Origin: Thiocapsa sp. KS1 | GTDB taxonomy: Bacteria > Pseudomonadota > Gammaproteobacteria > Chromatiales > Chromatiaceae | Length of the DNA stretch: 40,317 bases | NCBI RefSeq assembly: GCF_001499735.1 | Contig: NZ_LN848257.1 | Span: forward strand, 4,256,667 to 4,296,983 | Direction: 5' to 3' | In this document: positions 16,502 through 37,880 of the stretch, in pieces | Layout of the letters: each line of letters begins with the position of its first letter | How positions within the stretch are numbered: the first letter of the stretch is position 1 | The notes under the pieces: model-generated | The model's input: the letters and a program-made list of their open reading frames with translations, nothing else | Told to the model about the DNA's origin: nothing | Database searches by the model: none | Program-made: the position numbers and the translations under genes

Positions 16502-17245
16502 ATGAGCGACTGGGTAAAAGCGAAGGTAACGGGCAAGCATGCCTGGACGGACGGACTCTACAGTATGCAGTTCGACGGGCCGGTCGCTGACTTCAAGGCG
16601 GGGCAGTACATCAAGGTGGCCCTGGATATCGAAGGCGATCGTGTCGGACGACCCTACTCGCTGGTCAATCCGCCGCAGGAGCGTCCTGTGGAAATCTACT
16701 TCAACGAGGTCCCCGAGGGACCCTTGACACCCCGCCTCTCCGATCTGAATCCGGGCGACGAGGTCTGGCTGTCCGAGAAGCCGGGCGGGATCTTCACGCT
16801 CGACACCGTCGAGCCCGCGGAGACACTCTGGCTGCTCGCAACCGGTACGGCGCTCGGGGTTTATCTCTCGATCCTGCGCTCGCCCGAGCCTTGGGATCTG
16901 TTCGAGCGGGTGATTCTGGTTCACGGTGTGCGGCAGGCCACCGATCTCAGCTACGGCGAGACCCTCGCGGCGATCGCCGAGCGCCGGGGCGAGCGGTTCA
17001 AATTCGTGCCTGCGGTCAGTCGCGAGACGGTTCCCGGTGCGCTGTCCGGGCGCATCACCGACTTACTGACCAGCGGTGCCTTGGAATCGCACTTCGGAGC
17101 GGCCATCGACCGTCACACCAGCCATGTGATGCTGTGCGGCAACTCGGCCATGATCAAGGATGTGAAGGTCATTCTCGAAGAGCGTGGTCTGGCCCGCCAT
17201 AAGCGACATGCGCCCGGTCAGTACACGACGGAGCAGTACCACTGA
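16502..17245 (+). CDS. fpr: Ferredoxin--NADP+ reductase
   Basis: 247 residues (E. coli Fpr 248). ATG 16502 has AGGAG about 9 bases upstream. FAD-binding motif GRPYSLVNPPQ near residue 50, then FNEVPEGPLTPRL, a pyrophosphate/NADP-binding loop LLATGTALGVYLSIL, ILVHGVRQATDLSY, and the C-terminal HVMLCGNSAMIKDV. It moves electrons between NADPH and ferredoxin or flavodoxin in the cytoplasm. The C-terminus GQYTTEQYH resembles Fpr-type tails. Its TGA stop codon is the first three bases of repeat element A. Confidence 0.93.
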   Translation: MSDWVKAKVTGKHAWTDGLYSMQFDGPVADFKAGQYIKVALDIEGDRVGRPYSLVNPPQERPVEIYFNEVPEGPLTPRLSDLNPGDEVWLSEKPGGIFTLDTVEPAETLWLLATGTALGVYLSILRSPEPWDLFERVILVHGVRQATDLSYGETLAAIAERRGERFKFVPAVSRETVPGALSGRITDLLTSGALESHFGAAIDRHTSHVMLCGNSAMIKDVKVILEERGLARHKRHAPGQYTTEQYH

Positions 17246-17327
17246 GCCGCGTCCAGAGCGCGATGCTCATGTTCGAGTGAGCTCGACGTTTGGTGCATCC
17301 ATAGCCCCTTGTCGGGGACGCGGTTGA
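17243..17327. repeat. TIR element copy A
   Basis: 85 bases with ends TGAGCCGCGTCC and GGACGCGGTTGA. The first three bases are the fpr stop codon. The interior (GCTCGACGTTTGGTGCATCC) is shared with copy B at 32819-32902, with about 80% identity overall. Confidence 0.8.
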
Positions 17328-17381
17328 GTCTATTAGGGATGCCGATTCCTGAGATAGGAACCGATTTTTTCGACAAGCCGG

Positions 17382-18947
17382 ATGCCGATGGACACCTCTG
17401 GGACCACCCTCGAAAGCCTTGTCCGACTCTCGGCCGAGGTGACCGTTCGGTCGGCGCGTCGCGACAAGATCGGTCTGATCGCGGATCTGCTCGGTCGACT
17501 GGGCCGCGAGGAGACCGCGCTCGCCGCGAGCTATCTTGCCGGTGAGATCCCGCAAGGGCGCGTCGGTGTCGGGCCGGCGCAGGTGGATGCGCTCCGCGGT
17601 CTGGTCCCGGTCGAGCGGGGCCGTTTGACCCTCGGTGACCTGGATCGAACATTCGATGCCCTGATCGCCGTCAAGGGTGTCGGTGCGCAGGTACAGCGTC
17701 GAGCGCTGCTGCAGGGGCTGTTCGAGCAGGCCACCCGCGAGGAGCAGGGATTTCTTGCCCGCTTGATGCTCGGCGAGCTGCGTCAAGGGGCGGTCGAGGC
17801 CCTGGTGATGGAGGCGGTCGCACAGGCGGCCGGGCTGGATTCCGGACTGGTTCGGCGAGCCCTCATGCTGAGCGGCGACCCGGCGCGGGTGACGCGCACG
17901 GCCTTCGACTCCGGAGCCGCGGGGCTGCGCGGGATCGGTCTTGAGCTCTTTCGTCCGATCCTGCCGATGCTCGCCCAGCCCGCGGAGGATCTCGACGACG
18001 CGCTCGCCCGGCTCACGGCGCCCGCTCTTGAGTTCAAGCTCGACGGCGCCCGTGTGCAGGTCCACAAGCGCGGCGAGGAGGTGCGTGTCTACAGCCGCCA
18101 GGGCCATGAGGTGACCGCGGCGGTGCCCGAGATCCCCGAGCTGATCGCCCCCCTTCCTGTCGCCGATCTGGTGCTCGACGGCGAGGTGCTGGCGCTGCGT
18201 GCGGACGGGCGACCCCATCCCTTCCAGACCAGCATGCGCCGTTTCGGTCGGCGGCTCGACGTCGCGAGCCTGCGTGCCGAGCTGCCGCTGAGCGCCTTCT
18301 TTTTCGATTGCATCCAATGCGACGGGACACTTTTGATCGATGCCCCGGCACGCGAGCGTTTCGGCGCACTCGCCGCGGTGGTTCCGAATCGCGCGCTCAT
18401 CCCGCGGCTGCATCCGACGGACGCGGCCGAGGCCCGCGCCTTTCTGGAGCGGGCACTCGCCGCCGGTCACGAGGGGATCATGGCCAAGGATCCGGCGGCG
18501 CCCTATGCAGCCGGTGCGCGCGGTCGGCAGTGGCTCAAGATCAAGCCGACGCAGACGCTCGACCTGGTGGTTCTGGCGGCGGAATGGGGCAGCGGGCGGC
18601 GCAGCCGTTGGCTGAGCAATCTGCATCTGGGGGCACGCGACCCGGCGGGCGGCTTCGTGATGCTGGGCAAGACCTTCAAGGGTCTGACCGATGCGATGCT
18701 GATCTGGCAGACCGAACGCCTGAGCGCGCTCGCCGCGGCGCAGGAGGGTCAGGTGGTGCATGTGCGACCGGAGTTGGTCGTCGAGATCGCCTTCAACGAG
18801 CTTCAGGAGAGCCCGCAATATCCGGGCGGGCTCGCCTTGCGCTTCGCGCGCGTCAAGCGCCATCGCCCGGACAAGACCGCCAATCAGGCCGACGACATCG
18901 CGACGGTCCAAGCGATCTTTCGGCGGCAGGTCGCCTATTCATCTTGA
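17382..18947 (+). CDS. ATP-dependent DNA ligase (actinobacterial/archaeal type)
   Basis: 521 residues. The N-terminal DNA-binding domain spans about 1-200. The adenylation motif is LEFKLDGARVQVHKRG with the AMP-accepting Lys219. Motif III FFFDCIQCDG, motif IV EGIMAKDPAAPY and motif V RQWLKIKPTQ follow, and then an OB-fold domain (VMLGKTFKGLTDAML; VEIAFNELQESP). It would seal nicks with ATP, in addition to the NAD-dependent LigA expected elsewhere in the genome. The start is ATG 17382 or 17388; neither has a strong ribosome-binding site. This full-length type with a DNA_ligase_A_N-like domain is known mainly from archaea and actinobacteria and scattered proteobacteria. No Ku or LigD genes are adjacent. 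Confidence 0.9.
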   Translation: MPMDTSGTTLESLVRLSAEVTVRSARRDKIGLIADLLGRLGREETALAASYLAGEIPQGRVGVGPAQVDALRGLVPVERGRLTLGDLDRTFDALIAVKGVGAQVQRRALLQGLFEQATREEQGFLARLMLGELRQGAVEALVMEAVAQAAGLDSGLVRRALMLSGDPARVTRTAFDSGAAGLRGIGLELFRPILPMLAQPAEDLDDALARLTAPALEFKLDGARVQVHKRGEEVRVYSRQGHEVTAAVPEIPELIAPLPVADLVLDGEVLALRADGRPHPFQTSMRRFGRRLDVASLRAELPLSAFFFDCIQCDGTLLIDAPARERFGALAAVVPNRALIPRLHPTDAAEARAFLERALAAGHEGIMAKDPAAPYAAGARGRQWLKIKPTQTLDLVVLAAEWGSGRRSRWLSNLHLGARDPAGGFVMLGKTFKGLTDAMLIWQTERLSALAAAQEGQVVHVRPELVVEIAFNELQESPQYPGGLALRFARVKRHRPDKTANQADDIATVQAIFRRQVAYSS

Positions 18948-18964
18948 GGCGATACGACCTGTAA

Positions 18965-18982
18965 GGGCGACTTTAGTCGCCC
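18965..18982. repeat. Hairpin GGGCGACT-TT-AGTCGCCC after the ligase gene
   Basis: A perfect 8-bp stem with a 2-base loop, 17 bases after the ligase stop. There is no T-tract, so it is more likely a 3' repeat or transcript-stabilising hairpin than a terminator. The rest of the gap to 19144 carries ATTGTCGTTGTCG and CGATTACGAAAACGAAAACG, relatives of the motif at 32704. Confidence 0.5.
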
Positions 18983-19143
18983 GATAGCAGCCATCTGCCG
19001 TCGCGCCGCTTATCCCGGGACATCGCTGTTTGCGCAGTGTAGAGCGTCCGAGATCATTGTCGTTGTCGGCGATCGATACGACCGCGATTACGAAAACGAA
19101 AACGAACGGTATCGACACATCTGCCGTGCTGCACTAAATCCAA

Positions 19144-20718
19144 ATGCTGACTCCGGTAACCATGACGAATCCAATCTGCCGACATCTGGTGCTCGTTCTC
19201 GGGGATCAGCTCGACGCCGGGGCTGCGGCCTTGCGCGACCTGGATCCGGCACTTGATCGGGTCTGGATGTGCGAGGCGGTCGAGGAGTCGACCCATGTAC
19301 CGTCCCACAAGACGCGGATCCTGCTGTTTCTGTCCGCGATGCGGCACTTTCGCGACGACTTGGAGGCCGAGGGGATCCGCGTCCATTATCGGGCGCTCGA
19401 TGTCGAGGCGGATCCGTCGCTCGCTGCCGGTCTCGCTGCGGCGATCCGGATCCTGCGCCCGGAGCGTTTGATCCTGACCGAGCCGGGGGAGCATCGCGTT
19501 CTCACGGCCTTGCAGGGCGTCGCCGAAGCCAGTGCAGTGCCGCTCGAGATCCGCCCGGACGAGCACTTCATCTGCTCTCGAGCCGAGTTCGATCGCTGGG
19601 CGGCCGGTCGCAAAGGGCTTCGCTTGGAGCACTTCTACCGCCATCTGCGCAAGCGAGAAGGTGTCCTGATGGAAGGCTCGGCGGATGCCGCGCAACCCGT
19701 CGGCGGTCAGTGGAACCTGGATCAAGAGAATCGCAAGGCGTTCGGTCGGCAGGGTCCGGGCATGGTGCCTGAACCGATCGGGTTTCCACCCGACACCATC
19801 ACGCGGGACCTGATCGCACTGATCCAGCAGCGCTTCCCGAATGCACCGGGCACCTTGAAACACTTCGACTGGCCGGTGACCGCGGCCCAAGCCCGCGAGG
19901 CGCTCGACGACTTCATCCGCAACCGACTTGCCGCTTTCGGCCCCTGGCAAGACGCCATGTGGACCGGCGAGCCCTATCTCTATCACGCTCGGATCTCGGC
20001 CGCCCTCAATCTCAAGCTGCTTGATCCGCGTACCGCGATCGATGCCGCGATCGCAGCCTTCGAGGCGAACCAGGCGCCGCTTGCCTCGGTCGAAGGCTTC
20101 GTCCGCCAGATCCTCGGCTGGCGTGAATATGTGCGCGGGATCTATTGGCGCGAGGGGCCGGTCTATCTGGAGTCGAATGTCCTGGAGGCACACCGCCCGC
20201 TCCCGAATTTTTACTGGACCGGACAGACCGACTACGCTTGTCTCGAAGCGTCGATCGGACAGGTGCTCGAATACGGTTACGGCCACCATATTCAACGCCT
20301 GATGGTGACCGGGCTATTCTCGCTCCTGCTCGGGGTCGAGCCGCGCGAGGTCCATGCCTGGTACCTGGCGATGTTCGTCGATGCCGTCGAATGGGTCGAG
20401 GCGCCCAACGTGATCGGGATGAGCCAGTTCGCCGACGGTGGGCTGTTGGCCTCCAAGCCCTATGTCGCGACCGGCCAATACATCGAACGGATGAGCAACT
20501 ATTGTCGGCACTGCCGCTATGATCCGAAGGAGGCCGTCGGTGAGAGCGCCTGTCCATTCACGACGCTCTACTGGGATTTTCTCGATCGGCACCGGGATCG
20601 GTTCGCCAGCCATCCGCGCACGGCGTTGCAGTGGCGGAATCTCGCGCGAATGGATCCCGAGCGCCTCGGCGCGATTCGTCGGCGGGCGGAGGCGCTTCGC
20701 GGCGATTTGGCGACGTGA
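19144..20718 (+). CDS. FeS-containing (6-4) photolyase-like protein (FeS-BCP/PhrB family)
   Basis: 524 residues. The N-terminal photolyase-related alpha/beta domain opens with RHLVLVLGDQLDAGAAALRD. The helical FAD domain includes SVEGFVRQILGWREYVRGIY, YGYGHHIQRLMVTGLFSLL and DAVEWVEAPNVIGMSQFADG. Four cysteines fit the [4Fe-4S] ligands of Agrobacterium PhrB: Cys366 (DYACLE), Cys454 and Cys457 (NYCRHCRY), Cys470 (SACPF). Their spacing of 88, 3 and 13 is the same as Cys350/438/441/454 in PhrB. It probably repairs (6-4) photoproducts using light. The start is ATG 19144 or 19162; no clear ribosome-binding site decides it. The FAD oxidoreductase gene follows on the same strand. Confidence 0.93.
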   Translation: MLTPVTMTNPICRHLVLVLGDQLDAGAAALRDLDPALDRVWMCEAVEESTHVPSHKTRILLFLSAMRHFRDDLEAEGIRVHYRALDVEADPSLAAGLAAAIRILRPERLILTEPGEHRVLTALQGVAEASAVPLEIRPDEHFICSRAEFDRWAAGRKGLRLEHFYRHLRKREGVLMEGSADAAQPVGGQWNLDQENRKAFGRQGPGMVPEPIGFPPDTITRDLIALIQQRFPNAPGTLKHFDWPVTAAQAREALDDFIRNRLAAFGPWQDAMWTGEPYLYHARISAALNLKLLDPRTAIDAAIAAFEANQAPLASVEGFVRQILGWREYVRGIYWREGPVYLESNVLEAHRPLPNFYWTGQTDYACLEASIGQVLEYGYGHHIQRLMVTGLFSLLLGVEPREVHAWYLAMFVDAVEWVEAPNVIGMSQFADGGLLASKPYVATGQYIERMSNYCRHCRYDPKEAVGESACPFTTLYWDFLDRHRDRFASHPRTALQWRNLARMDPERLGAIRRRAEALRGDLAT

Positions 20719-20769
20719 GGGGGCGGTTGAGGGTGGAGGAGCTGTCAGTCTTCTGCTATCAGCTATCAC

Positions 20770-20855
20770 TTAAACCGCATCTCTACCGTCGATGCAGATG
20801 GCCCCGAGACCAAGCCAGACTGAACACAGCCCATATCACTCCGGACGCGGTTTAA
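20770..20855. repeat. TIR element copy E
   Basis: 86 bases with ends TTAAACCGCAT and GGACGCGGTTTAA. It ends two bases before the ATG of the FAD oxidoreductase. Its reverse complement aligns with copy F (shared AGTG, GGTCTCGGG and CATCTG blocks). Confidence 0.8.
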
Positions 20856-20857
20856 CC

Positions 20858-22180
20858 ATGAGCACAGACGTCATTATCATCGGTGCCGGTCTCTCCGGAC
20901 TGGCTTGTGCCGTAACGCTGCGCGAGCGGGGTTTCGAGCCCCTGCTGATCGAGGCGTCGGACGCCCCCGGCGGGCGGGTGCGCACCGATCGACGTGACGG
21001 CTTTCTCCTGGATCGCGGCTTCCAGGTGTTGCAGACCTGGTATCCGGAGGCACAGCGATTCTTCGACTATGCGCGCCTGGATCTGCGTCCCTTCTATCCG
21101 GGGGCGCTGGTCCACACGCAGGGGCAGCTGCATCGTGTCAGCGATATCTGGCGCCGTCCGACACGTCTGCCCGAGATGCTGGTCTCGCCGGTGGGAAGCC
21201 TCGGCGACAAGCTGAGACTCCTCGCGCTGCGTCGACGCTGTCTCTCCGGGGATCTCGAAGCGCTCTATTCGCGTCCGGAGCGCGAGGCCTTGAGCCTGCT
21301 GCGCGAGCTGGGTTTCTCCGCGCGCATGATCGAGCGCTTCTTCAAGCCCTTCTTCAGCGGCGTCTTCTTCGAGCCCGGGTTGGGCGTGTCTTCGCGCGCC
21401 TTCGAGTTCGTGTTTCGTGCCTTTGCGCTGGGCGATACGGCCCTGCCGGCGCGCGGGATGGGCGAGCTTCCGGCACAGCTCGCGCAGCATCTGCCGCGTG
21501 ACTCCATCCGCACAGGTGCGCGCGTGGAGCGCATCCTGGACCAACAGGTTCTGCTCGACACGGGCGAGCGGCTGCGGGCGGGCACTATCGTCCTGGCGAC
21601 CGAGGGCAACGAGACGGCACGTCTCCTGGGTCGCTCGCATAGCGCGGCGGTGGCGGGGCGCGGAACCACCTGTGTTTATTTCGCGGCGAGCGCGCCGCCG
21701 ATCGAAGGTCCGTATCTCGTGATCAACGGCGAGGGGCGAGGGCGGATCAACAGCCTGCTGTGTCCGAGCAATCTGTCGGATCAGTATGCCCCGCGGGGCG
21801 AGAGCCTCATCGCGGTCAACGTGCATGGTGCGGAGCACAACCCGGATGCGCTCGAAACCGATCTGCGGCGCGAGCTGCTCGGCTGGTTCGGCGACCAGGT
21901 TCTCGGCTGGACGCGTTTGGCGGTGTATCGGCTGCCGCGTGCCTTGCCGGTTCAGTCGCCGCCTGTTCCCTATCCGGGCACGGTGCGGCTGCGCCAATCC
22001 AATTGGCTCTGGACCTGCGGGGAGTATCGATCGGCGCCATCGATCCAGTGGGCGCTGCATTCCGGGCGTCGTGCGGGGGAGGAGATTGCGGGCAGCCAGC
22101 TCGGCAGTTGCGAAGAAGACGCGCTCGGGCGGCCGGACGCCGGTCCGCGCACGACGCGCCTGCCTTCCACCGATCCCTGA
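20858..22180 (+). CDS. FAD-dependent amine oxidase/phytoene desaturase-like oxidoreductase
   Basis: 440 residues from ATG 20858. The N-terminal dinucleotide motif is TDVIIIGAGLSGLACAVTLR, followed by EASDAPGGRVRTDRRDGFLL, the GG-doublet region of the amine oxidase/carotenoid desaturase superfamily. The C-terminal FAD motif is WTCGEYRSAPSIQWALHSGR. Substrate unknown. Relatives frequently sit beside photolyase-family genes, and here it follows one by 139 bases. The start lies immediately after element E, so any ribosome-binding site must come from the repeat (GGACGCGGTTTAACC), where none is strong. The tail after residue 415 is rich in Arg/Pro and probably disordered. Confidence 0.87.
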   Translation: MSTDVIIIGAGLSGLACAVTLRERGFEPLLIEASDAPGGRVRTDRRDGFLLDRGFQVLQTWYPEAQRFFDYARLDLRPFYPGALVHTQGQLHRVSDIWRRPTRLPEMLVSPVGSLGDKLRLLALRRRCLSGDLEALYSRPEREALSLLRELGFSARMIERFFKPFFSGVFFEPGLGVSSRAFEFVFRAFALGDTALPARGMGELPAQLAQHLPRDSIRTGARVERILDQQVLLDTGERLRAGTIVLATEGNETARLLGRSHSAAVAGRGTTCVYFAASAPPIEGPYLVINGEGRGRINSLLCPSNLSDQYAPRGESLIAVNVHGAEHNPDALETDLRRELLGWFGDQVLGWTRLAVYRLPRALPVQSPPVPYPGTVRLRQSNWLWTCGEYRSAPSIQWALHSGRRAGEEIAGSQLGSCEEDALGRPDAGPRTTRLPSTDP

Positions 22181-22382
22181 CCGATCCCCGAGCGGCCGCG
22201 TCCCTCGGTCCCGCGTGCGGGACTCGTCGTGCTGCCCGAATCCGCCCGGACGGGTTCAGACCCTACCGAAAGAAGGGCTTCTGTCGGGGAGAAAACCCAA
22301 GATCCTGAACGGGTTGCACCGATTGGGCGGATCTCCTATCGTAGCCGTCCACGAGAACAATCATCCACCTGGAGTTTGGAGT

Positions 22383-23036
22383 ATGAGCTCTCCCTTTCTG
22401 CGTGCGCTGGCTCTTTCCCTCGCTTTTTCGGGTACCCTGGCCGTCACCCCTTCGGTCCTTGCCAGCACCTCCGATGCGGAGGCCGAGCCGGATCTGGATC
22501 TCGGTCAACGCCTGCATCGCCAGTGTGCGCTCTGCCACGGTCAGTACTCGCAGGGCATCCTCGGTGGAAAGTATCCGCGTCTCGCCGGTTTGCCCGACTA
22601 TTATCTGGTCAAGAGCCTGACCGACTATCGCGACGGCGTGCGCGAGCATGCGGCCATGACGGTGGTCGGCGGCCTGCGCACCTTGTCGGACTCCGATTTG
22701 GCAAGCCTGTCCGCCTATATCGCGAGCATCGATCTGGATGCCGTCCATCCGCTCGATGTCCCAACCCCGGAAGGTGCGGATGTCGAGAACGGCGAGGAGA
22801 TCTATCAGAGCGACTGCAAGACCTGTCACGGACGCGCTGCCGAAGGCAACAAGCGCAAGGAAAGCCCCAAGCTTGCCGGCCAGTACGACGGTTATCTCCT
22901 GCGCCAGATCGAGAAGTTCAAGGCAGGCAAGCGGATGCACGCCAATGATCCGGACGACGAGACCTTCGTGGACTACAGCGATCAGGACATCCTCGATATC
23001 ATCGGCTTCGTGACCACGGTCGACGACAAGAACTGA
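22383..23036 (+). CDS. Di-haem cytochrome c4
   Basis: 217 residues. Signal peptide MSSPFLRALALSLAFSGTLA...VLAS. Two class I c-type domains carry haem motifs RQCALCHGQYSQG near residue 50 and SDCKTCHGRAAEGNK near 145. The pattern KYPRLAGLPDYYLVKSLTDY and SPKLAGQYDGYLLRQIEKFK (xLAGQ...YLxxQL) is characteristic of c4, and Met ligands are probable in EHAAMTVV and KRMHAND. It is a periplasmic electron carrier between bc1 or sulfur-oxidising dehydrogenases and terminal oxidases or the photosynthetic reaction centre. TTTGGAGT precedes the ATG. A DUF302 gene follows 45 bases later, probably in the same transcript. Confidence 0.92.
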   Translation: MSSPFLRALALSLAFSGTLAVTPSVLASTSDAEAEPDLDLGQRLHRQCALCHGQYSQGILGGKYPRLAGLPDYYLVKSLTDYRDGVREHAAMTVVGGLRTLSDSDLASLSAYIASIDLDAVHPLDVPTPEGADVENGEEIYQSDCKTCHGRAAEGNKRKESPKLAGQYDGYLLRQIEKFKAGKRMHANDPDDETFVDYSDQDILDIIGFVTTVDDKN

Positions 23037-23081
23037 GCGCCGAGTCGAGCACACTCATAACAATATCTCGAGGATTCAAGA

Positions 23082-23588: not shown

Positions 23589-23655
23589 TCCGCCACCCGT
23601 CGGGCCAGGGCGACCTGGCTCGACAGCACACCCAAATCCATAGGTCGGGCCGTAG

Positions 23656-23776
23656 GTCGGATTAGCGAAAGCGTAATCCGACATGCAACCTTCGAGCAGG
23701 TCGCAAACGTCGGGTTACGGTGCGCATCGAGCTTGTCAGGCAGCATTCGAGGGGTGCCGGCGCGCCTAACCCGACC
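23656..23776. repeat. Two REP-like inverted repeats (GTCGGATTA...TAATCCGAC; GTCGGGTTA...TAACCCGAC)
   Basis: First unit 23656-23682: GTCGGATTA-GCGAAAGCG-TAATCCGAC. Second unit 23711-23776: GTCGGGTTACG and CCTAACCCGAC around a 45-base centre. These fill the gap between the convergent DUF302 and PAP2 genes; no intrinsic terminator with a T-tract is visible. Confidence 0.7.
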
Positions 23777-29722: not shown

Positions 29723-31638
29723 CAGTCCAACACCGGCAGAGGGACATGCAAGGCCGCAACGACGGCCCGCAGCAGCTCGATCTCCGTCCGCTTGATCCCG
29801 GCGTGCTGCAGGGTCGCGATCAGGGCGCGGAGCAGGCGTTGCTTGTCGTCCATGCGCAGCCGATCGAGCCGAGCGAGCGCACGGTCGAGTCGATCCGGCC
29901 AGTCATCCGGTGCGATCGGGGCCAAGTCGCGCGGACGCATCCCGAGGGACGCCAGACCGGCAGCGAAGGCGGTCCGCGCGGTGCGTTGATCGGGGTTGCC
30001 GTGCATTGCCAGGATGACCAGCAGATCACGGATCTCGTTCTCGCAGCCGGAGAGATGTGCGGTCCCGGCGCTGCGGGCATCGGTCGGAGCGATGGTGTCT
30101 TGGATCTGCTGCGCCAGGAGACGTGCGAGGACATACTCGAAGACATCGATCCGTCCGTCGGCATGGATCAGCCGATCGATCAGCCCCATCAAGCGCGTCA
30201 GCTCGGTCTGCGGACGACGGCGCAGGGTCGGGAAGGCGATCTCGAGCAGCGGGATGCGCAGGTCCGCCGCCAGGCTCGGGACCGCGGAGAGGAGTGTGCT
30301 CACCTGACGCTCGTGCTCGCTGCCGAGTGTCTCGGCGACCATCAAGAGCTGGCGCTCGCGGATCTCGGGGTCCGGGTCGATCAAGAAGTAGCAGACCAGC
30401 GTCATCACCCACTCGGTGGAGCGGGCGGCGCGTGCGAGCGGTTCCGGGATGGCCCGGTTCAGGCGAGCCGCCACCTGGATCCGTGCCGTATCGGGTCGCC
30501 CGATTGCGCCGACGATGCGATCCGCATCGAGGCTCGACGGGCTCGGTCGGCCTTCGAGAATCGGCCGGTGCTCGGCCATCGCGGCGACGATGCCGGCCGC
30601 GCTCGGTGTCGCCAAGCTCTGCATCACCTGCATCGTTTCCAGCTCCGCCGGGTCGAAACCCGGCTCGATCGCACGAATGCGATCCGCGATCGGCGGATGT
30701 GTGGCCAAGAGCCGACGCGTCAGCCCCGCAGCGAAGAGCATGTGCCCGATCTCCTCGCTGTCCGCCGCAAGTGCCGAGCCGGCCGGCGCCGAGCCGATCT
30801 TCTTCAGGGCGCCGGCGATCCCCTCCGGCTCGCGGGTGAACTGAACGGCCGAGGCGTCGGCCAAGAACTCGCGTTGACGCGACACCGACGCCCGGATCAG
30901 CCGGCCGAAGAAGAGCCCGATATAGCCGGTGGCGACCAGGGCGAGGCCGATCATGGCGATCGCGGCGGTGTGCTTGCTGGTTTGGCCATGCCGCACCGAG
31001 AGCATGAGTCGGCCGATGATGGCCAGCACCAGGATCCCGAACAAGATCCCGATCAGGCGAATATTCAGCCGCATGTCGCCGTTGAGGATGTGCGAGAACT
31101 CGTGTGCAACAACGCCCTGAAGCTCCGAACGGCTCAGTGTCCGCAGCGCGCCCCGGGTGACGGCGACCGCCGCATCGGCAGGCGAATAACCTGCGGCAAA
31201 GGCGTTGATGCCGTCCTCCTGCTCCAACACGAAGATTTGGGGCACCGGAACACCCGATGCGATGGCCATCTCCTCGACCACATTGCGCAACCGCTGCAAC
31301 TGCGGATCCGTGGTGTCCGCATTGACCATGACCCCGCCGAGCCCGCGCGCGACCGCCCCGCCGCCGTTGCGCAGGGTCAGGATCCGGAACAGGCTGGCGA
31401 GCCCGATGGCGCCCGCGGTCAGCACAGAGACCCAAATGAGCAGCGGCAGGCTTTCGCGAACCGCGGCGGGCGAGAACACCGGCGAGACGCCGAGGCCGTC
31501 CGGATCCGAGCCGAACCCCAGGAACGCGAGGGCGACCAAGTCGACGACGGCCACGATGCTGATCACGGCGAGCACGAAGAGCACCACCAGGAGATGCGTG
31601 CGCCGCCGGGCACGGTCCTGATGCGCGAAGAAGTCCAA
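29722..31638 (-). CDS. M48-family membrane metalloprotease with C-terminal TerB-like region
   Basis: 638 residues. The N-terminus DFFAHQDRARRRTHLLVVLF leads into two membrane helices. The zinc site is VVAHEFSHILNGDM near residue 178, with the third ligand in SRQREFLADASAVQ. Two more membrane helices lie between them. After about residue 330 comes a long cytosolic or periplasmic helical part containing GLIDRLIHADGRIDVFEYVL, a TerB-like metal-binding pattern. The TTG start at 31638 is chosen because the family begins with this FFxHQDxAR motif, but there is no ribosome-binding site: element F abuts it directly. The partner gene lemA lies upstream with only elements F and G between. Such LemA-M48 pairs are common; the substrate is unknown. 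Confidence 0.88.
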   Translation of the reverse strand: MDFFAHQDRARRRTHLLVVLFVLAVISIVAVVDLVALAFLGFGSDPDGLGVSPVFSPAAVRESLPLLIWVSVLTAGAIGLASLFRILTLRNGGGAVARGLGGVMVNADTTDPQLQRLRNVVEEMAIASGVPVPQIFVLEQEDGINAFAAGYSPADAAVAVTRGALRTLSRSELQGVVAHEFSHILNGDMRLNIRLIGILFGILVLAIIGRLMLSVRHGQTSKHTAAIAMIGLALVATGYIGLFFGRLIRASVSRQREFLADASAVQFTREPEGIAGALKKIGSAPAGSALAADSEEIGHMLFAAGLTRRLLATHPPIADRIRAIEPGFDPAELETMQVMQSLATPSAAGIVAAMAEHRPILEGRPSPSSLDADRIVGAIGRPDTARIQVAARLNRAIPEPLARAARSTEWVMTLVCYFLIDPDPEIRERQLLMVAETLGSEHERQVSTLLSAVPSLAADLRIPLLEIAFPTLRRRPQTELTRLMGLIDRLIHADGRIDVFEYVLARLLAQQIQDTIAPTDARSAGTAHLSGCENEIRDLLVILAMHGNPDQRTARTAFAAGLASLGMRPRDLAPIAPDDWPDRLDRALARLDRLRMDDKQRLLRALIATLQHAGIKRTEIELLRAVVAALHVPLPVLD

Positions 31639-31727
31639 TTAAACTGCGTCCTTAGTGTTCATGTGGGGTTTTCGCTTGGGCGAGGTCTCGGGTGTCATCT
31701 GTCGGCGCTGGAGCGGACGCAGTTTAA
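31639..31727. repeat. TIR element copy F
   Basis: 89 bases with a perfect 13-bp terminal inverted repeat TTAAACTGCGTCC/GGACGCAGTTTAA. The C-to-T change relative to the other copies is matched on both ends (a compensatory pair). It abuts the TTG start of the M48 gene with no spacing. Confidence 0.85.
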
Positions 31728-31750
31728 GTATTCAAAAAATATAAACTATT
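31728..31750. promoter_or_regulatory. AT-rich core between elements F and G
   Basis: The 23-base stretch GTATTCAAAAAATATAAAC+TATT is almost the reverse complement of the 22-base spacer between copies B and C (32903-32924). AAAAAATATAAA is shared. It may be a promoter or a bending-protein site; neither is proven. Together F-core-G (31639-31835) forms a composite filling the lemA-M48 gap. Confidence 0.45.
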
Positions 31751-31835
31751 CTGAACTGCGCCCCGCCGTGTTCGTGGATCGCGGAGAGGTCGTTCCCAAA
31801 CGCAATCCTTCCATAGACGCACAAGCGCGGTTCAG
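31751..31835. repeat. TIR element copy G
   Basis: 85 bases with ends CTGAACTGCGC and GCGCGGTTCAG. The right end contains the lemA stop codon TGA (31834-31832), at the same offset as the stop codons in copies A, D and H. Confidence 0.75.
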
Positions 31836-32413
31836 AAGGAGACTTGGACGGCCTCGCGTTTCTCCGGCGCATCGATCTCCAACAACTGCGCGGCCGTGAA
31901 TCCGAAGCGCTGCGCGATCAGGTTGTTCGGGAAGACCTCGCGCAGGGTGTTGTAGCCCATGACCGCATCGTTGAAGGCTTGGCGTGCGAAGGCCACCCGG
32001 TTCTCGGTGCTGACCAGCTCCTCGGAGAGCTGCATCATGTTCTGATTGGCCTTGAGGTCGGGGTAGGCCTCGGAGAGCGCGAACAGCTTACCGAGTGCGC
32101 CGGCCACGCCCATCTCCGCTTGGGCCAGCATCGCCACCGCGGCGCCGTCGCTCGGATCGGCCGCGACCTGCTTGAGGCTGCCGACCGCTTGGTTGCGGGC
32201 CTGGATGACGGCCTCGAGCGTGTCGCGCTCGTGGGTCATGTAGCGCTCGGCGACCTTGACCAGATTCGGGATCAGGTCATAGCGGCGCGTGAGCTGAACA
32301 TCGATCTGAGCAAAGGCGTTTTTGTAGCGATTGCGTCCGGCAACCAGACGGTTGTAGATGACGACGACGAGAATCGCGGCGAGCAGGATCAGGCCAAGCA
32401 GTGTCCATCCCAT
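31832..32413 (-). CDS. lemA: LemA family protein
   Basis: 193 residues from ATG 32413 (GGGGGA 9 bases upstream); longer in-frame sequence upstream is not LemA-like. One N-terminal membrane helix (MGWTLLGLILLAAILVVVIY) is followed by the helical-bundle LemA core: LVAGRNRYKNAFAQIDVQLT, RRYDLIPNLVKVAERYMTHE, LFALSEAYPDLKANQNMMQL, STENRVAFARQAFNDAVMGY, and FPNNLIAQRFGF. It is anchored with the bulk in the periplasm. It is paired with the M48 protease downstream, whose activity or substrate delivery LemA may support (inference). Its stop codon lies inside element G. Confidence 0.93.
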   Translation of the reverse strand: MGWTLLGLILLAAILVVVIYNRLVAGRNRYKNAFAQIDVQLTRRYDLIPNLVKVAERYMTHERDTLEAVIQARNQAVGSLKQVAADPSDGAAVAMLAQAEMGVAGALGKLFALSEAYPDLKANQNMMQLSEELVSTENRVAFARQAFNDAVMGYNTLREVFPNNLIAQRFGFTAAQLLEIDAPEKREAVQVSF

Positions 32414-32703
32414 CGGTGTTCCCCCACGCTGATGACTGTCCCCCGAGCCCGGCAGTCGCCGGGTCCGGTGTCCGGCCGAGGCCGGTACGCGGCCTTCGGC
32501 AATGCGGCGGAAGGCTAACATACTCCCGCGGGGTAAGCAGGGGTCGAGCCCGCCCGCGCGCTGCGGACCGAGGTCGCCATGCTGCCTCGGCTTGCCGATG
32601 CGGGTCGAGGGAGTACCATTGCGTCCGTGCGGCCCCGTGCTTGACTCGATGCGACAGTTGAGAATAAGTCACGTGTCAGAAGTAGGTTAAGTACCGAATC
32701 TAA

Positions 32704-32748
<45 letters not shown>

Positions 32749-32818
32749 ATTACGATTACGACAACGAGAACCGTGGCAAAGGGATTCTCTCGTCGAGTCG
32801 TTTTGCTTTTTCTGTTCC

Positions 32819-32902
32819 TAAACCGCGTCCAGAGCGAGATGCTCACTTTTGCGTGAACTCGACGTTTGGTGCATCCACGGCTCTTAGCGGGGGCGCGGTT
32901 TA
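32819..32902. repeat. TIR element copy B
   Basis: 84 bases with ends TAAACCGCGTCC and GGCGCGGTTTA. The interior is shared with copy A (GACGTTTGGTGCATCCA). A 22-base AT-rich core (32903-32924) separates it from copy C. Confidence 0.85.
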
Positions 32903-32924
32903 GAAATTTATATTTTTTAATAAC

Positions 32925-33012
32925 TTAAACCGCGCCGGCTCCGGCAATTGTCGGAGCCGGCGCGGCCAAGCCAATCCAACAAACTACGCATGTCGCGCCG
33001 GGCGCGGTTTAA
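32925..33012. repeat. TIR element copy C
   Basis: 88 bases with a perfect 12-bp terminal inverted repeat TTAAACCGCGCC/GGCGCGGTTTAA and an inner stem GCCGGCTCCGGCAATTG(TC)/GGAGCCGGC. Its last bases, continuing into AAGGAG, create the ribosome-binding site of exbB. Confidence 0.85.
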
Positions 33013-33023
33013 GGAGCTCCCTC

Positions 33024-33650
33024 TTGCTTGAAATGATGTACGCCGGCGGGTGGCTGATGGTGCCGATCGTCGCCTGCTCGATCATCGCCACCGCCGTCGT
33101 CATCGAGCGGGCCTGGACGCTGCGCCGCTCGCGGATCATGCCGGCGAATCTGGTCACCCGGATCTGGGAGTGGCACCGTCGGGGAGAGCTGACCGATGCG
33201 CGGATCGAGGAGATCCGCACCGGCTCCCCGCTCGGGCGTTTGCTTGCGGCCGGCCTCATCAACCGCAACCACTCGCGCGAGATCATGAAGGAGGCGATCG
33301 AGGACACCGGCCGACAGGTGGTGGCCGAGCTGGAGCGCTTTCTCAACAGTCTGGGGACGATCGCCTCGGTGGCCCCTCTGCTGGGTCTGTTGGGAACGGT
33401 TCTCGGGATGATCGACGTCTTCGGCGTCATCATGGACGCCGGTGTCGGCAACGCCGCCATGCTGGCGGGGGGGATCTCCAAGGCGCTGATCACGACGGCG
33501 GCCGGTCTGTCGGTGGCCATCCCGGCACTCCTTTTCCATCGCTTCTTCGACAACAAGGTCGCGCGGCTTGCACTCGACATGGAGGAGCAGTCGCTGCGTT
33601 TGGTGGAGGTCATGAAGGGCGAGCGCGAGGCCGGCGAGGTCTCCGCGTGA
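33024..33650 (+). CDS. exbB: ExbB/TolQ/MotA-family proton channel
   Basis: 208 residues. TTG 33024 is chosen because AAGGAG (33011-33016) lies 7 bases upstream; the ATG at 33033 is too far from it. The N-terminus LEMMYAGGWLMVPIVACSII is a typical ExbB start. Two further membrane helices carry SVAPLLGLLGTVLGMIDVFG and GGISKALITTAAGLSVAIPA, the conserved ExbB/TolQ pore segments. With ExbD it uses the proton gradient to energise an envelope process. First gene of the exbB-exbD-msbA-lpxK-kdsB series; the position suggests a function linked to lipid A export rather than TonB, although no tonB is in view. Confidence 0.92.
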   Translation: MLEMMYAGGWLMVPIVACSIIATAVVIERAWTLRRSRIMPANLVTRIWEWHRRGELTDARIEEIRTGSPLGRLLAAGLINRNHSREIMKEAIEDTGRQVVAELERFLNSLGTIASVAPLLGLLGTVLGMIDVFGVIMDAGVGNAAMLAGGISKALITTAAGLSVAIPALLFHRFFDNKVARLALDMEEQSLRLVEVMKGEREAGEVSA

Positions 33651-34165
33651 ATCTGCGTCCGCACCGTCGCGAGCCGGCCGATATCAATATCACCCCGCTG
33701 ATCGATGTGGTCTTTCTCCTGCTGATCTTCTTTATGGTCTCGACCACCTTCAAGGACGAGGCGCGGCTGCGCGTGCAGCTGCCCGAGGCGCAGGGCGAGG
33801 AGATCCCGGCCGAGGAGCCCGAGATGATCCGGCTCGTCATCGATCGTACCGGGTCCTTCAATGTCGACGATCGGGCCGTGCTCGACCGCAAGACCGGCAC
33901 GCTGGTCCAGGTGTTGAAGGATCGGCTCGGGGAGGGCAAGCCCTTGCCCGTGCTGATCCAGGCCGATGCACAGACGCCGCATCAGGCGGTGATGACGGCG
34001 CTCGATGCGGCCAGTCAGGCCGGACTGGTGCGGATCGCATTCGCGGCGACGCGTGCCCCGCAGGACGATGCCGATGCCGAACCGGCTCGAACCCCGTCCG
34101 GGCAATCCGCCCCGCCGTTCGACCCGCAGCCCGCTCAGTCATCCGCAGGGGAGGTCGCTGAATGA
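33647..34165 (+). CDS. exbD: ExbD/TolR-family protein
   Basis: 172 residues from GTG 33647, which overlaps the exbB TGA (GTGA). The single membrane helix with its essential Asp is in INITPLIDVVFLLLIFFMVS. A periplasmic domain follows (RLRVQLPEAQGEEIPAEEPE; PVLIQADAQTPHQAVMTALD). The proline/serine-rich C-terminal tail from about residue 150 is longer than usual and probably disordered. It pairs with ExbB as the proton-motive stator. The stop codon overlaps the msbA start (ATGA). Confidence 0.92.
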   Translation: MNLRPHRREPADINITPLIDVVFLLLIFFMVSTTFKDEARLRVQLPEAQGEEIPAEEPEMIRLVIDRTGSFNVDDRAVLDRKTGTLVQVLKDRLGEGKPLPVLIQADAQTPHQAVMTALDAASQAGLVRIAFAATRAPQDDADAEPARTPSGQSAPPFDPQPAQSSAGEVAE

Positions 34166-35943
34166 CCCATGATGCATCCCGCTCCGAGGTCGAGGCGGGT
34201 CCCATCTATCGCCGACTGTTGGGTTACGTCAAACCCTACTGGCGGATGTTTACGGTCTCGATCGTCGCCATGATCGCCTTCGCGGCCACCGAGCCGCTCT
34301 TCGCGGCCATGATGCAGCCGCTGATCGACGGCAGCTTCGTGGACCGCAACGAGGAGATCGTGCGCCTCATGCCGTTCGTGTTGGTGGTGCTCTTCGTGTT
34401 TCGCGGGATCGCCGGCTTCATCAACAACTACTGTCTGAGCTGGGTCGGCCGACGCGTGGTCGCGGATCTGCGCCAAAAGATGTTCGAGCATCTGCTGCGT
34501 GCCCCGACGCGTTATTACGACAATCAGGGCTCGGGTCACATCCTCGCCAAGCTGACCTACAACGTGGAGAACGTCGCCACGGCGGCCACATCGGCGATCA
34601 CCACCCTGGTCCGCGACGGCTTCACTGTTATCGGCCTGATGGCCTACATGCTTTACCTGAACGCCGCACTCTCGGCGATCTTCCTGGTGATCGGCCCGCT
34701 CATGGCCGGCGCGGTCAAGTATGCGACCAAGCGTTTTCGCCGCCACAGCCGCCGTATCCAGGACCGAGTCGGTGCGCTGACGCAGGTCGCGCAGGAGGCG
34801 ATCGAGGCCCATCGGGTGGTCAAGGCGTTCGGCGGGCAACCACTCGAGGCGCGACGTTTCAGCGCCATCAACGAGAAGACCCGCTCGCTTCAGATGAAGA
34901 TGATCGCCACCGAGGCGGCCAGCGTGCCGCTGGTCCAGCTGATTTCGGCCGTGGCGATCGCTGTGATCGTCTACCTCTCGACCATGCAGGGACTAAAGGA
35001 AGACATCTCGGTCGGCACCTTCATGTCATTCGTGGTCGCCATGGGTCTGCTCCTGCCGCCGGTGAAGCGTCTGACCTCTGTAAACGCCCATCTGCAACGC
35101 GGCATCATCGCCGCCCAGAGCCTGTTCGAGCTGTTGGATGCGGAGGAGGAGCGCGATCAGGGGCAGCGGACGTTGGAACGTGCCGAGGGGCGCGTCGAGT
35201 ACCGCGGTGTCACCCACGTCTATTCGTCCGACAAGCCACCGGCGATCCGGGATCTCGACCTCGTCATCGCACCGGGCGAGCGGGTCGCGCTGGTCGGACG
35301 CTCCGGCAGCGGTAAAAGCACGGTCGCGAGCCTGCTGCCGCGGTTCTACGATGCGACCGCGGGCGAGATCCTGATCGACGGCATCCCGATCGGCGAGCTG
35401 ACCTTGGCGAGTCTGCGCGCCCAGATCTCGCTCGTCAGTCAGGACGTGGTGCTCTTCAACGACAGCATCGCCAACAACATCGCCTATGGTCAGGCCGTAA
35501 CGCCGAGCCGCGAGACGCTCGAGCGCGTCGCCGTGAACGCCCACGCGCTCGACTTCATCCAGGCGATGCCCGAGGGTTTCGACACGCGGATCGGCGATCG
35601 CGGCGTCATGCTCTCGGGCGGGCAGCGCCAGCGTCTCGCGATTGCGCGTGCGATGCTCAAAGACGCCCCGATCCTGATCCTGGACGAGGCCACCTCCGCG
35701 CTCGACACCGAGTCCGAGCGCCATATCCAGGCCGCCCTCCAGGAGCTGATGGCAAACCGCACGACCCTGATGATCGCCCATCGTCTCTCCACCATCGAGA
35801 ACGCCGACCGCATCCTGGTGATGGACAACGGACAGGTCGTCGAGCAGGGCACCCACGGCGAACTGCTGGCACAGGACGGCTATTACGCCCGCCTGCACCG
35901 CCTCCAATTCCACGATGCCGGCGAGCCGCCGGCCGCGTCGTAG
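34162..35943 (+). CDS. msbA: Lipid A export ATP-binding/permease protein MsbA
   Basis: 593 residues (E. coli 582). The N-terminal six-helix ABC exporter domain includes LIDGSFVDRNEEIVRLMPFV and VADLRQKMFEHLLRAPTRYY. The nucleotide-binding domain has Walker A GRSGSGKSTVASLLPRFYD near residue 380, a Q-loop in ISLVSQDVVLFNDSIANNIA, the ABC signature LSGGQRQRLAIARAML near 484, and Walker B ILILDEATSALDTES. It flips core-lipid A across the inner membrane and is encoded beside lpxK and kdsB, as in many gammaproteobacteria. Length and motifs are complete. A 9-bp hairpin directly follows the stop codon. Confidence 0.95.
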   Translation: MTHDASRSEVEAGPIYRRLLGYVKPYWRMFTVSIVAMIAFAATEPLFAAMMQPLIDGSFVDRNEEIVRLMPFVLVVLFVFRGIAGFINNYCLSWVGRRVVADLRQKMFEHLLRAPTRYYDNQGSGHILAKLTYNVENVATAATSAITTLVRDGFTVIGLMAYMLYLNAALSAIFLVIGPLMAGAVKYATKRFRRHSRRIQDRVGALTQVAQEAIEAHRVVKAFGGQPLEARRFSAINEKTRSLQMKMIATEAASVPLVQLISAVAIAVIVYLSTMQGLKEDISVGTFMSFVVAMGLLLPPVKRLTSVNAHLQRGIIAAQSLFELLDAEEERDQGQRTLERAEGRVEYRGVTHVYSSDKPPAIRDLDLVIAPGERVALVGRSGSGKSTVASLLPRFYDATAGEILIDGIPIGELTLASLRAQISLVSQDVVLFNDSIANNIAYGQAVTPSRETLERVAVNAHALDFIQAMPEGFDTRIGDRGVMLSGGQRQRLAIARAMLKDAPILILDEATSALDTESERHIQAALQELMANRTTLMIAHRLSTIENADRILVMDNGQVVEQGTHGELLAQDGYYARLHRLQFHDAGEPPAAS

Positions 35944-35970
35944 GTTGTGCTGACGTTAGGAAGCACAACC
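35943..35970. repeat. Hairpin GGTTGTGCT...AGCACAACC after msbA
   Basis: Perfect 9-bp arms around a 10-base loop, with no T-tract. It is a REP-like repeat between msbA and lpxK that may stabilise the upstream message. Confidence 0.6.
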
Positions 35971-36034
35971 CGCTCGGCGCTCCGTCGAGCCTCCCGCGCC
36001 TCGACACACCCGAGAGGGGAGGGGAGCTGAAGTA

Positions 36035-37039
36035 GTGGACCCGAACCCGATCTGGTACGGCCGTCATCCGCTCGGCCTCATCCTCGCGCCGTTCTCCTGG
36101 CTCTACTGTCTGGTGGTCCAACTGCGCCGCCTGAGCTACCGCAAGGGCTGGCTGGCGAGCCTGCGCCTGCCGGTGCCCGTCGTGGTGGTCGGTAATCTCA
36201 CCGTCGGCGGGACCGGCAAGACCCCGGCCGTCCTGAAGCTCGCGGAGCTGCTGCGGGCGCGTGGTTGGAATCCCGGGATCATCACCAGAGGATATGGCGG
36301 ACGTGGCCCGGTTGCGCCGCGCCGGGTCTCTCCTGAAAGCGAGCCCGCCGATGTCGGCGACGAGCCCGTGCTGCTCGCCCGTCGCAGCGGTTGCCCCGTC
36401 GTCGCCGGACCGGATCGCTTCGCCGCCGGTGCGCTCGCACTGTCCGGGGGCGACCTGGTGGACATCCTCCTCGCCGACGACGGACTCCAACACTATCGGT
36501 TGGCCCGAGACATCGAGATTGCGGTCGTCGACGGTGCGCGCGGACTCGGCAACGGGCGCTGTCTGCCCGCGGGGCCGTTGCGCGAGCCGCGCGGGCGTCT
36601 GACCACGGTCGATCTGGTGCTGACCAACGGCGGCGACCGGGACGAAGGGTACCGGATGCGTCTGGTTCCGGGGGCGGCGGTCAATCTCCGTGACCCCGCC
36701 GTCTCCAAGCCGATCGCCGAGTTCATTGGGGGGCGGCCCGTCTTTGTTGTCGCCGCGATCGGCAACCCCGAGCGCTTCTTCGCCATGCTCCGCGGTCTGG
36801 GTCTCCAGGTCGAGGGCCGCGCCTACCCGGATCACTATCCCTTTGCACCGTCGGATCTTGCGGCTTGGCCGGCGGGTCCGGTGCTCATGACCGAGAAGGA
36901 CGCCGTGAAGTGCGCGCCCTTCGCCTGCGAGGATCACTGGTTTCTACCCGTGGACGCCGAGCTGGATACGGCCTTCGTCGAGGCATTCTTTCGCAAGCTG
37001 GAGGCACGGACCCATGTCTGCCCGAGAGACTTCCGATAA
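36035..37039 (+). CDS. lpxK: Tetraacyldisaccharide 4'-kinase
   Basis: 334 residues (E. coli 328) from GTG 36035, with GGGGAG about 9 bases upstream. N-terminal membrane-associated helix GLILAPFSWLYCLVVQLRRL, Walker A VVVGNLTVGGTGKTPAVLKL near residue 58, GIITRGYGGRG, VGDEPVLLARRSGCPVV, and DILLADDGLQHYRLARDIEI. It phosphorylates the 4' position of lipid A precursor at the inner membrane. The 3' end overlaps kdsB by 26 bases. The small Trm112-like gene often found between lpxK and kdsB is absent. Confidence 0.95.
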   Translation: MDPNPIWYGRHPLGLILAPFSWLYCLVVQLRRLSYRKGWLASLRLPVPVVVVGNLTVGGTGKTPAVLKLAELLRARGWNPGIITRGYGGRGPVAPRRVSPESEPADVGDEPVLLARRSGCPVVAGPDRFAAGALALSGGDLVDILLADDGLQHYRLARDIEIAVVDGARGLGNGRCLPAGPLREPRGRLTTVDLVLTNGGDRDEGYRMRLVPGAAVNLRDPAVSKPIAEFIGGRPVFVVAAIGNPERFFAMLRGLGLQVEGRAYPDHYPFAPSDLAAWPAGPVLMTEKDAVKCAPFACEDHWFLPVDAELDTAFVEAFFRKLEARTHVCPRDFR

Positions 37040-37799
37040 ACCCCTAGGATTCAAGGTCGTTATCCCCGCGCGCTACGGCTCGACGCGACTTCCGGGCAAA
37101 CCCCTGTTGCTGATCGCCGGCAAGCCGATGATCCAGCATGTCGTGGAGCGCGCGCGCGCGAGCGCCGCCGATGAGATCCTGGTCGCGACCGACGACCCAC
37201 GCATCGCCGAGGCCTGTCACGGCTTCGGCGCCGAGGTGGTGATGACCGGCAGCGAGCACCGCAGCGGGTCCGAGCGCATCACCGAGGTGATCGAGCTGCG
37301 CGGTTGGGACGACGACGTGGTGGTGGTCAACCTGCAGGGCGACGAGCCGGCGATGCCGGCGGCCTTGCTGGATCAGGTCGCGAGCGACCTGGCCGCCATC
37401 GCCGATCTCGGCATGTCCACGTTGGCCGCACCGATCTCCGAGCGCGCGACCCTCTTCGATCCACACGTGGTGAAGGTGGTCACGGACGCGAAGGGCTACG
37501 CGCTCTATTTCTCCCGCGCTCCGATGCCCTGGCACCGCGACGAGTTTCTCGCCGATCGCGCCGAGCTGCCGACATCGGTCGCTTTTCTGCGCCACATCGG
37601 GCTCTATGCCTACCGCGTCGGCTTCCTCAAGCGCTATCTGGCTTGGGCGCCGTCGCCCCTGGAGGTGGCGGAGTCGCTGGAACAGCTGCGCGTGCTCTGG
37701 CATGGGGAGCGTATCCATGTGGCGATCGCCGAGTCCGAGCCCGGGCCGGGCGTGGATACGGCCTCGGATCTGGCCAGGGCCGAGCGGCATCTGGCTTAA
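37014..37799 (+). CDS. kdsB: 3-deoxy-manno-octulosonate cytidylyltransferase
   Basis: 261 residues (E. coli 248). Motifs: FKVVIPARYGSTRLPGKPLL (nucleotide-binding), MIQHVVERARA, EILVATDDPRIAEA, MTGSEHRSGSERITEVIE, VVVNLQGDEPAMPAALLDQV, ALYFSRAPMPWHRD and RHIGLYAYRVGFLKRYLAWA. It activates KDO as CMP-KDO for transfer to lipid A. It starts inside the lpxK coding region. The TAA stop codon is bases 2-4 of repeat element D. Confidence 0.96.
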   Translation: MSARETSDKPLGFKVVIPARYGSTRLPGKPLLLIAGKPMIQHVVERARASAADEILVATDDPRIAEACHGFGAEVVMTGSEHRSGSERITEVIELRGWDDDVVVVNLQGDEPAMPAALLDQVASDLAAIADLGMSTLAAPISERATLFDPHVVKVVTDAKGYALYFSRAPMPWHRDEFLADRAELPTSVAFLRHIGLYAYRVGFLKRYLAWAPSPLEVAESLEQLRVLWHGERIHVAIAESEPGPGVDTASDLARAERHLA

Positions 37800-37880
37800 A
37801 CCGCGTCCTCGGCCCAGCGGGTGGTGTGGAAGTTGGCTATGCGTTTGCGCACGGATCGGCGTTGGCGTTGATGCGGTTTA
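37796..37880. repeat. TIR element copy D
   Basis: 85 bases with ends TTAAACCGCGTCC and GATGCGGTTTA. The kdsB stop codon TAA is bases 2-4 of the element. Confidence 0.8.

What the first reader, a model, noticed from the sequence alone, without database searches (positions are those of the whole stretch)
17243..37880. Family of 84-89 bp elements bounded by TTAAACCGCG inverted repeats
Seven clear copies (A 17243-17327, E 20770-20855, F 31639-31727, G 31751-31835, B 32819-32902, C 32925-33012, D 37796-37880) share ends TTAAACCGCGtcc/ggaCGCGGTTTAA and near-constant length. Interiors fall into subfamilies: A with B, and reverse-complemented E with F. All are intergenic and no transposase is in the window. 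I know of no described family with these features.
Basis: seen in the sequence. Interest (0 to 1): 0.82.

Follow-up and report, generated by a model that had tools for sequence, protein, structure and literature searches.

The report
Paired-hairpin mobile elements of Thiocapsa
These repeats are short, gene-less jumping elements of a purple sulfur bacterium that carry the ends of a larger insertion sequence, often sit exactly on the stop codons of genes, and in a few places have kept their ends so well that the host may now use them.

Summary
All seven copies are present (A and G have altered ends). With exact 9-base ends the family has 119 copies in the window's assembly, 165-578 in seven other genomes of the genus, 0 in three, and 0 in every reversed-pattern control. 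They are non-autonomous elements (MITEs) with the ends of the IS630 (Tc1/mariner) family: relatives hold a 1.27-kb IS630-family insertion sequence with matching terminal repeats (up to 30 of 35 bases) in the same Y-TA...TA-R surroundings. Two clean empty sites fit duplication of TA. Among 201 units, 88 are pairs: two ~87-bp modules in opposite orientation around an AT-rich spacer, mostly 20-21 bp, ~194 bp in all; window F/G and B/C are such pairs. Units lie on gene stop codons more often than free YTAR sites do (77 of 170 against 88 of 687 outside coding DNA). At fixed sites the arms change less than the interior (0.049 against 0.272 in the 26 most diverged comparisons), and arms co-vary (13 compensated changes against 1.4 expected). 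Spread by an IS630-type transposase is well supported; host use of old copies is plausible but unproven.

The parts
17243..17327 (+). Element A: solo B-type module with altered ends; its first three bases (TGA) are the stop codon of the ferredoxin-NADP reductase-like ORF 16424-17245
   Evidence: (below NCBIfam cut-off); at this junction element-free G010 reads TGA and G002 TTGA
20770..20855 (-). Element E: solo module at the same position in all 8 element-bearing genus genomes, followed by CC-ATG in 8 of 8
   Evidence: G003 carries a paired change TTGAAC/GTTCAA
31639..31727 (+). Element F: first module of the F/G pair; arms almost unchanged in 8 genomes (diversity 0.010 against 0.220 interior)
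31728..31750 (.). AT-rich spacer of the F/G pair
31751..31835 (-). Element G: second module of the F/G pair; its right edge holds the stop codon of the MamQ-like (LemA family by recall) ORF 31832-32521, minus strand
   Evidence: (below cut-off); paired change CTGAAC/GTTCAG to CTAAAC/GTTTAG in G003 and G005, and in G009 with one further arm change
32818..32903 (+). Element B: B-type module of the B/C pair
32904..32924 (.). 21-bp AT-rich spacer of the B/C pair
32925..33012 (-). Element C: C-type module of the B/C pair; many places in the genus match the pair 32818-33012 end to end
37796..37880 (+). Element D: solo module; its TTAA supplies the TAA stop (37797-37799) of kdsB, ORF 37014-37799
   Evidence: (above cut-off)

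Best explanation
The repeats are MITEs of the IS630 (Tc1/mariner) family. A transposase encoded elsewhere recognises a ~32-bp terminal repeat beginning TAAACCGCG and inserts the element at Y-TA-R, duplicating TA (ends and TA shown; the act itself inferred). Two forms occur: a solo ~87-bp module, and a ~194-bp pair of modules in opposite orientation around an AT-rich spacer. Each module has the outermost ~12 bases at both sides, so either form could offer two usable ends (inferred; mobility of solo modules is not shown). When the YTAR lies in a stop codon, insertion leaves the gene whole because the element restores TAA (follows from the sequence; natural stops checked at few sites). A transcript leaving the gene would then carry the module as a hairpin (inferred). 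Some old copies keep their arms while the interior drifts and may have gained a host role as gene-end or intercistronic hairpins (inferred, unproven).
For: Autonomous relatives: G007 (1277 bp, transposase frameshifted), G058 (1276 bp) and G114 (three copies, 1274 bp, 396-aa ORF in one copy listed); G081 has a 944-bp remnant with both ends, G079 and G014 single ends. Transposase: PF13358 and PF13592; NCBIfam IS630 at 177.5 bits, cut-off 100. MITE against IS ends: 23-30 of 35 in 15 comparisons, best of 5000 shuffles 18-21. TA: G009 insertions L067 against G006 and L073 against G004; left CTA with right TTA in 13 of 13 left-C pairs, against a 3-bp duplication. Target: left Y 95 of 95, right R 94 of 95. 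Mobility: 16 of 20 top-scoring G009 loci hold a 193-194-bp unit in unrelated flanks.
Against: No transposase of this lineage at E<=1e-20 in the window's assembly, G001, G002 or G005 (other element-rich genus genomes, G009 included, were not in that sample), so the enzyme behind recent bursts is not identified in place. G007 has the IS but no exact-ended copy or model hit. Only two of nine insertions gave a base-clean empty site, L073 in one of three relatives; the rest are diverged or unhelpful. The left T was partly fixed by the search patterns. Only the first ~12 bases are shared by the inner ends of modules, so how solo modules arose is open.
Confidence: 0.91

Rival explanations
1. REP/REPIN-like elements moved by a RAYT (Y1) transposase: hairpins in inverted pairs with a short spacer, spread as single-stranded DNA.
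For: Hairpins in opposite orientation with a fixed spacer; Y1 genes of RAYT size in the genus; several of the 37 Y1 loci scanned have a module about 1.0-1.5 kb from the Y1 match.
Against: TA is gained on insertion, which Y1 enzymes do not do (recalled); Y1 genes occur in 11 of 11 genus genomes, including the three without exact-ended copies; no module lies directly at the edge of the 37 Y1 loci scanned, though a few single one-mismatch ends lie within 0.5 kb; the ends match an IS630 element.
Confidence: 0.04
2. The arms are kept complementary by a mutation process, template switching between the arms, and not by selection for a hairpin.
For: Compensated changes exceed the null, two modules have two or three at once, and no significant G-U over A-C bias is seen. 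Mechanism: PMC8794818 (abstract and introduction opening seen), PMC8604942 (start of abstract in listing).
Against: It should equalise arms, not slow their change; yet arms change far less than interiors at the most diverged sites (0.049 against 0.272). Both may act.
Confidence: 0.45
3. The modules are structured non-coding RNAs or cis-regulators by origin, spread by duplication and not by transposition.
For: Near-constant length, covarying arms, folds more stable than shuffles in most copies, residence at gene ends.
Against: Near-identical copies in unrelated flanks, TA gain, IS630 ends; no Rfam match on the elements at gathering threshold and nothing above gathering score at E<=5 in 31600-33050; little shared structure beyond the terminal stem in three alignments.
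Confidence: 0.04
4. Stop-codon residence comes from selection after insertion: copies elsewhere are lost, copies at gene ends are tolerated or useful.
For: Excess over non-coding YTAR (77 of 170 against 88 of 687); somewhat fewer units between divergent genes (17 of 166 against 110 of 741 gene pairs).
Against: Among the 20 G009 loci, 6 meet the ORF criterion at the C side and none at the B side (counted from the output), so target choice may contribute; gene calls are heuristic.
Confidence: 0.5

Closest known systems
RUP (repeat unit of pneumococcus), linked to IS630-Spn1 (passages of PMC2229807 and PMC3049150)
   Same: ~100 bp, no gene, ends like those of an IS630 element, insertion at TA, about a hundred copies, intergenic
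   Different: RUP is described as one simple 107-bp unit; here ~87-bp modules occur singly or as an inverted pair with an AT spacer, with diverged interiors of near-constant length and frequent stop-codon residence
Correia/NEMIS elements of Neisseria (passages of PMC2229807)
   Same: TIRs, TA at the termini, high copy number, transcripts with stem loops
   Different: other end sequence and lengths; no two-module pair in the passages seen
BOX elements of pneumococcus (passages of PMC3049150)
   Same: modular; of 58 genes overlapping BOX, 36 have the stop codon in BOX
   Different: A-B-C modules, similarity to ISSpn2 ends
REP/BIME/REPIN
   Same: hairpins in inverted pairs, intergenic
   Different: no TA duplication or IS630 ends (recalled); other enzyme class
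IS630-family insertion sequence of Chromatiaceae (L303, L326, L327 here)
   Same: terminal repeats, Y-TA...TA-R surroundings
   Different: 1.27 kb, encodes the transposase

Membership tests
MITE | short, no transposase gene, high copy number | tested here: met
   ~87 or ~194 bp; 119-578 exact-ended copies in 8 of 11 genus genomes
MITE | terminal repeats shared with an autonomous element | tested here: met
   30/35 with L326, 29/35 with L303; matching ends in 5 further genomes
MITE | target-site duplication | tested here: met
   two of nine insertions gave a clean empty site; the rest uninformative or diverged
IS630 (Tc1/mariner) | TA duplicated on insertion | tested here: met
   TTA fits the two sites as well, but left CTA with right TTA in 13 of 13 left-C pairs favours TA
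IS630 (Tc1/mariner) | IS630 transposase gene bounded by these ends | tested here: met
   NF033545 above cut-off, PF13358, ends
IS630 (Tc1/mariner) | transposase acts on these elements | not testable with these tools
   needs a binding or transposition assay
REP/REPIN | cognate RAYT directly flanked by the same repeats | tested here: not met
   37 Y1 loci scanned (L016-L025, L239-L265): nearest paired modules about 1.0-1.5 kb away; Y1 loci beyond these were not fetched
integron attC site | RYYYAAC/GTTRRRY core sites in cassette arrays with an integrase | not tested
   considered by eye only: one core position differs and copies are dispersed
Known Rfam RNA family | score above gathering threshold | tested here: not met
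   window: two tRNAs only; 31600-33050 at E<=5: 7 matches, all below gathering scores, some overlapping elements

The most novel reading that the evidence does not exclude
A genus-wide set of MITE-derived hairpins has been taken over by the host: copies fixed at gene ends, before start codons and between neighbouring genes keep their two arms and nearly their exact length over the whole genus while the interior drifts, so that each works as a conserved post-transcriptional or DNA-level element whose two ends are read together.
Probability: 0.3. Interest if true: 0.72.

Novelty: new variant of a known kind. Interest (0 to 1): 0.52.

Why it matters
It ties hundreds of repeats per genome in purple sulfur bacteria to a concrete IS630 element. 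Single sites can be followed across eight species, so one can ask directly how a parasitic repeat becomes a conserved hairpin, and whether paired changes in its arms come from selection or from template switching. It also shows a mobile element that often sits on stop codons without breaking the gene.

Tried and rejected
RAYT/REPIN origin: Y1 genes searched, no direct flanking in 37 loci. Rfam: nothing credible. Of 30 IS630-type loci fetched, TA-bounded ends could be read in 12 and only L303 matched. A scan of loci held for long elements with these ends gave 9 candidates: L303 was pursued; L129 was checked at the end and holds a carbonic-anhydrase gene, no transposase in the ORFs scanned; the other candidates were judged by their end letters only. 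attC: dropped by eye. RNA selection through G-U against A-C bias: 38 to 27, P=0.21, not significant. Length: 19 of 26 diverged orthologs unchanged, 6 at +1, 1 at +4, with 461 substitutions and 14 gap openings, suggestive only. E/F subfamily: not recovered (in which elements were kept only if at least 10 of 12 end pairs were complementary). A first covariation run included chance neighbours (43 compensated against 11.4) and was replaced by the stricter. A first orthologue comparison (69 rows, arms 0.106 against interior 0.146) had one-base register errors and was replaced, where interiors above 0.36 divergence were dropped. Against my reading: 3 of 20 modules have arms that change as much as or more than the interior; comparisons with interior divergence under 0.1 show no difference (0.063 both); and several of the 20 modules are one site seen from different anchors, so the P value is too small. 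phmmer against PDB found nothing.

Full report
OBSERVATION. All seven reported copies are in the window, and the end 10-mer is above chance (9 matches; shuffles mean 1.45, maximum 5). The window lies on contig C1 of a 10.4-Mb assembly. With exact 9-base ends the family has 119 copies in this assembly and 210, 309, 578, 273, 165, 336 and 469 in G001, G003, G004, G005, G006, G008 and G009, 0 in G002, G007 and G010, and 0 in each reversed-pattern control (11 genus genomes). With the looser model R1, G002 has 3 and G010 4 hits, G007 none. Two contig lengths equal those of Thiocapsa roseopersicina DSM 217 (G005) and T. marina 5811 (G003), so the genus is taken to be Thiocapsa (inference).

ANATOMY. 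Of 283 end-to-end matches of 47-113 bp, 268 are 86-88 bp. Among 201 units in 111 named-collection loci (80 listed, the rest held unlisted), the window and 20 syntenic stretches, 112 are solo, 88 pairs and 1 a triple. A pair is ~194 bp: two modules in opposite orientation around a spacer, mostly 20-21 bp, of the form GATATTAAAAAATATAAAATT. Of 20 top-scoring G009 loci, 16 hold the full 193-194-bp unit in unrelated flanks, a recent burst. Window F/G and B/C are pairs; A, D and E are solo. Interiors fall into clusters of 235 and 55, five of two, and 62 singles out of 362 unique elements.

MECHANISM OF SPREAD. Nine G009 insertions were compared with relatives through joined flanks. Two gave a clean empty site: the relative reads TTA (then A or G) where G009 has TTAAACC...GGTTTA. 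A TA or a TTA duplication fits; 13 of 13 pairs with C on the left read CTA left and TTA right, which favours TA. Outer bases are Y on the left (95 of 95; partly fixed by the search patterns) and R on the right (94 of 95) of C-B pairs. An IS630-family element with such ends was found in G007 (L303, 1277 bp). Its transposase led to 5 of 116 family genomes: full-length copies with both ends in G058 and G114, a 944-bp remnant with both ends in G081, single ends in G079 and G014. The G114 transposase is an open 396-aa frame and IS630 by NCBIfam. MITE and IS ends agree in 23-30 of 35 bases in 15 comparisons, the best of 5000 shuffles reaching 18-21. The window's assembly, G001, G002 and G005 show no match to this transposase at E<=1e-20, so the enzyme that moved the present copies is not identified in place.

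STOP CODONS. 107 of 379 outer ends have the stop of a coding-like ORF exactly at the element's TAA. By that criterion 95 of 178 units do, against 147 of 1043 free YTAR sites. By simple gene models 77 units sit on a stop, 93 in non-coding and 2 in coding DNA, free YTAR sites 88, 599 and 331: 45% against 13% outside coding DNA. In the window, A sits on the stop of a ferredoxin-NADP reductase-like ORF, D on that of kdsB, G on that of a MamQ-like ORF (only kdsB above cut-off). That the stop is natural is supported at A (TGA in element-free G010, TTGA in G002) and at the L063 insertion (TTGA in three relatives); L067 fits by eye, L073 is unclear. Elsewhere element-made stops are not excluded. Among 95 C-B pairs the stop faces the C side 39 times and the B side 19 times, both in 6 (orthologous and burst copies included, so not independent).

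EVOLUTION AT FIXED SITES. E and F/G occupy the same position in all 8 element-bearing genomes; F/G is absent in G002, G007 and G010, E in G002 and G010 (no syntenic match for E in G007). E is followed by CC-ATG in 8 of 8. Paired changes: E in G003; G in G003, G005 and, with one further change, G009. Among 192 modules found by their near end only, 13 changes are matched on the far arm against a null mean of 1.4, maximum 8 of 5000. Arms are more conserved than interiors in 17 of 20 orthologous modules (73 comparisons, Wilcoxon P=0.0005), but several of these are one site seen from different anchors. In the 26 comparisons with interior divergence of at least 0.18, arms average 0.049 and interiors 0.272; under 0.1 both are 0.063. 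Anchors had to be recognisable by their arms, a mild bias; orthologs were not so chosen. A test for strand-specific RNA selection was negative (38 G-U, 27 A-C, P=0.21). Single window modules fold with z from -0.5 to -6.2 (60 shuffles each).

READING. Origin and spread as an IS630-type MITE are well supported. The two-module architecture, the stop-codon residence and the slow arms at a few old sites are the unusual parts. Template switching can explain paired changes but not slow arms; host use can explain both but lacks direct evidence. I put host use of at least some copies at about 0.3.

LITERATURE. Thiocapsa with MITE terms (0 papers), IS630 with MITE terms (42 papers, 15 listed), IS630 with stop codon (11), Thiocapsa with insertion sequences (2), purple sulfur bacteria with palindromic repeats (2): no listing names this family. 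Passages were seen in PMC3049150, PMC2229807 and PMC4853749, the abstract and opening of PMC8794818.

Noticed in passing
G000:C2:1-20000 (L342): Contig C2 is 5.18 Mb and its first 20 kb have 41.7% GC against 64% in the window; all 150 scored model hits lie on C1. The 10.4-Mb assembly may hold two organisms.
   Followed up: partly
window 20770-20858: E is followed by CC-ATG of an FAD-oxidoreductase-like ORF in 8 of 8 genomes, so its right arm would overlap the ribosome-binding region (a longer frame could start at 20792).
   Followed up: partly
L067 and G006 L266: A G009 unit sits at what reads by eye as an antitoxin stop / toxin start overlap; the G006 site is empty.
   Followed up: no
L339 (G042) and G028: Two further genera reach the hit cap for model R1, without a match to the transposase used.
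   Followed up: no
L301, L309, L316, L318, L324: Another IS630-type element with TATACCTC ends; G009 has eight similar hits, ends read in four.
   Followed up: no
L251, L257, L262, L264 near positions 54-186: Element ends recur at the same distance (about 1.3 kb) from a RAYT-like gene in several genomes, probably one orthologous site.
   Followed up: no
L083:7005-7093 and L174:7003-7092: Same-length modules with different but complementary ends (TTAAACTTCGGC/GCCGAAGTTTAA, TTAAAACGCG/CGCGTTTTAA).
   Followed up: no
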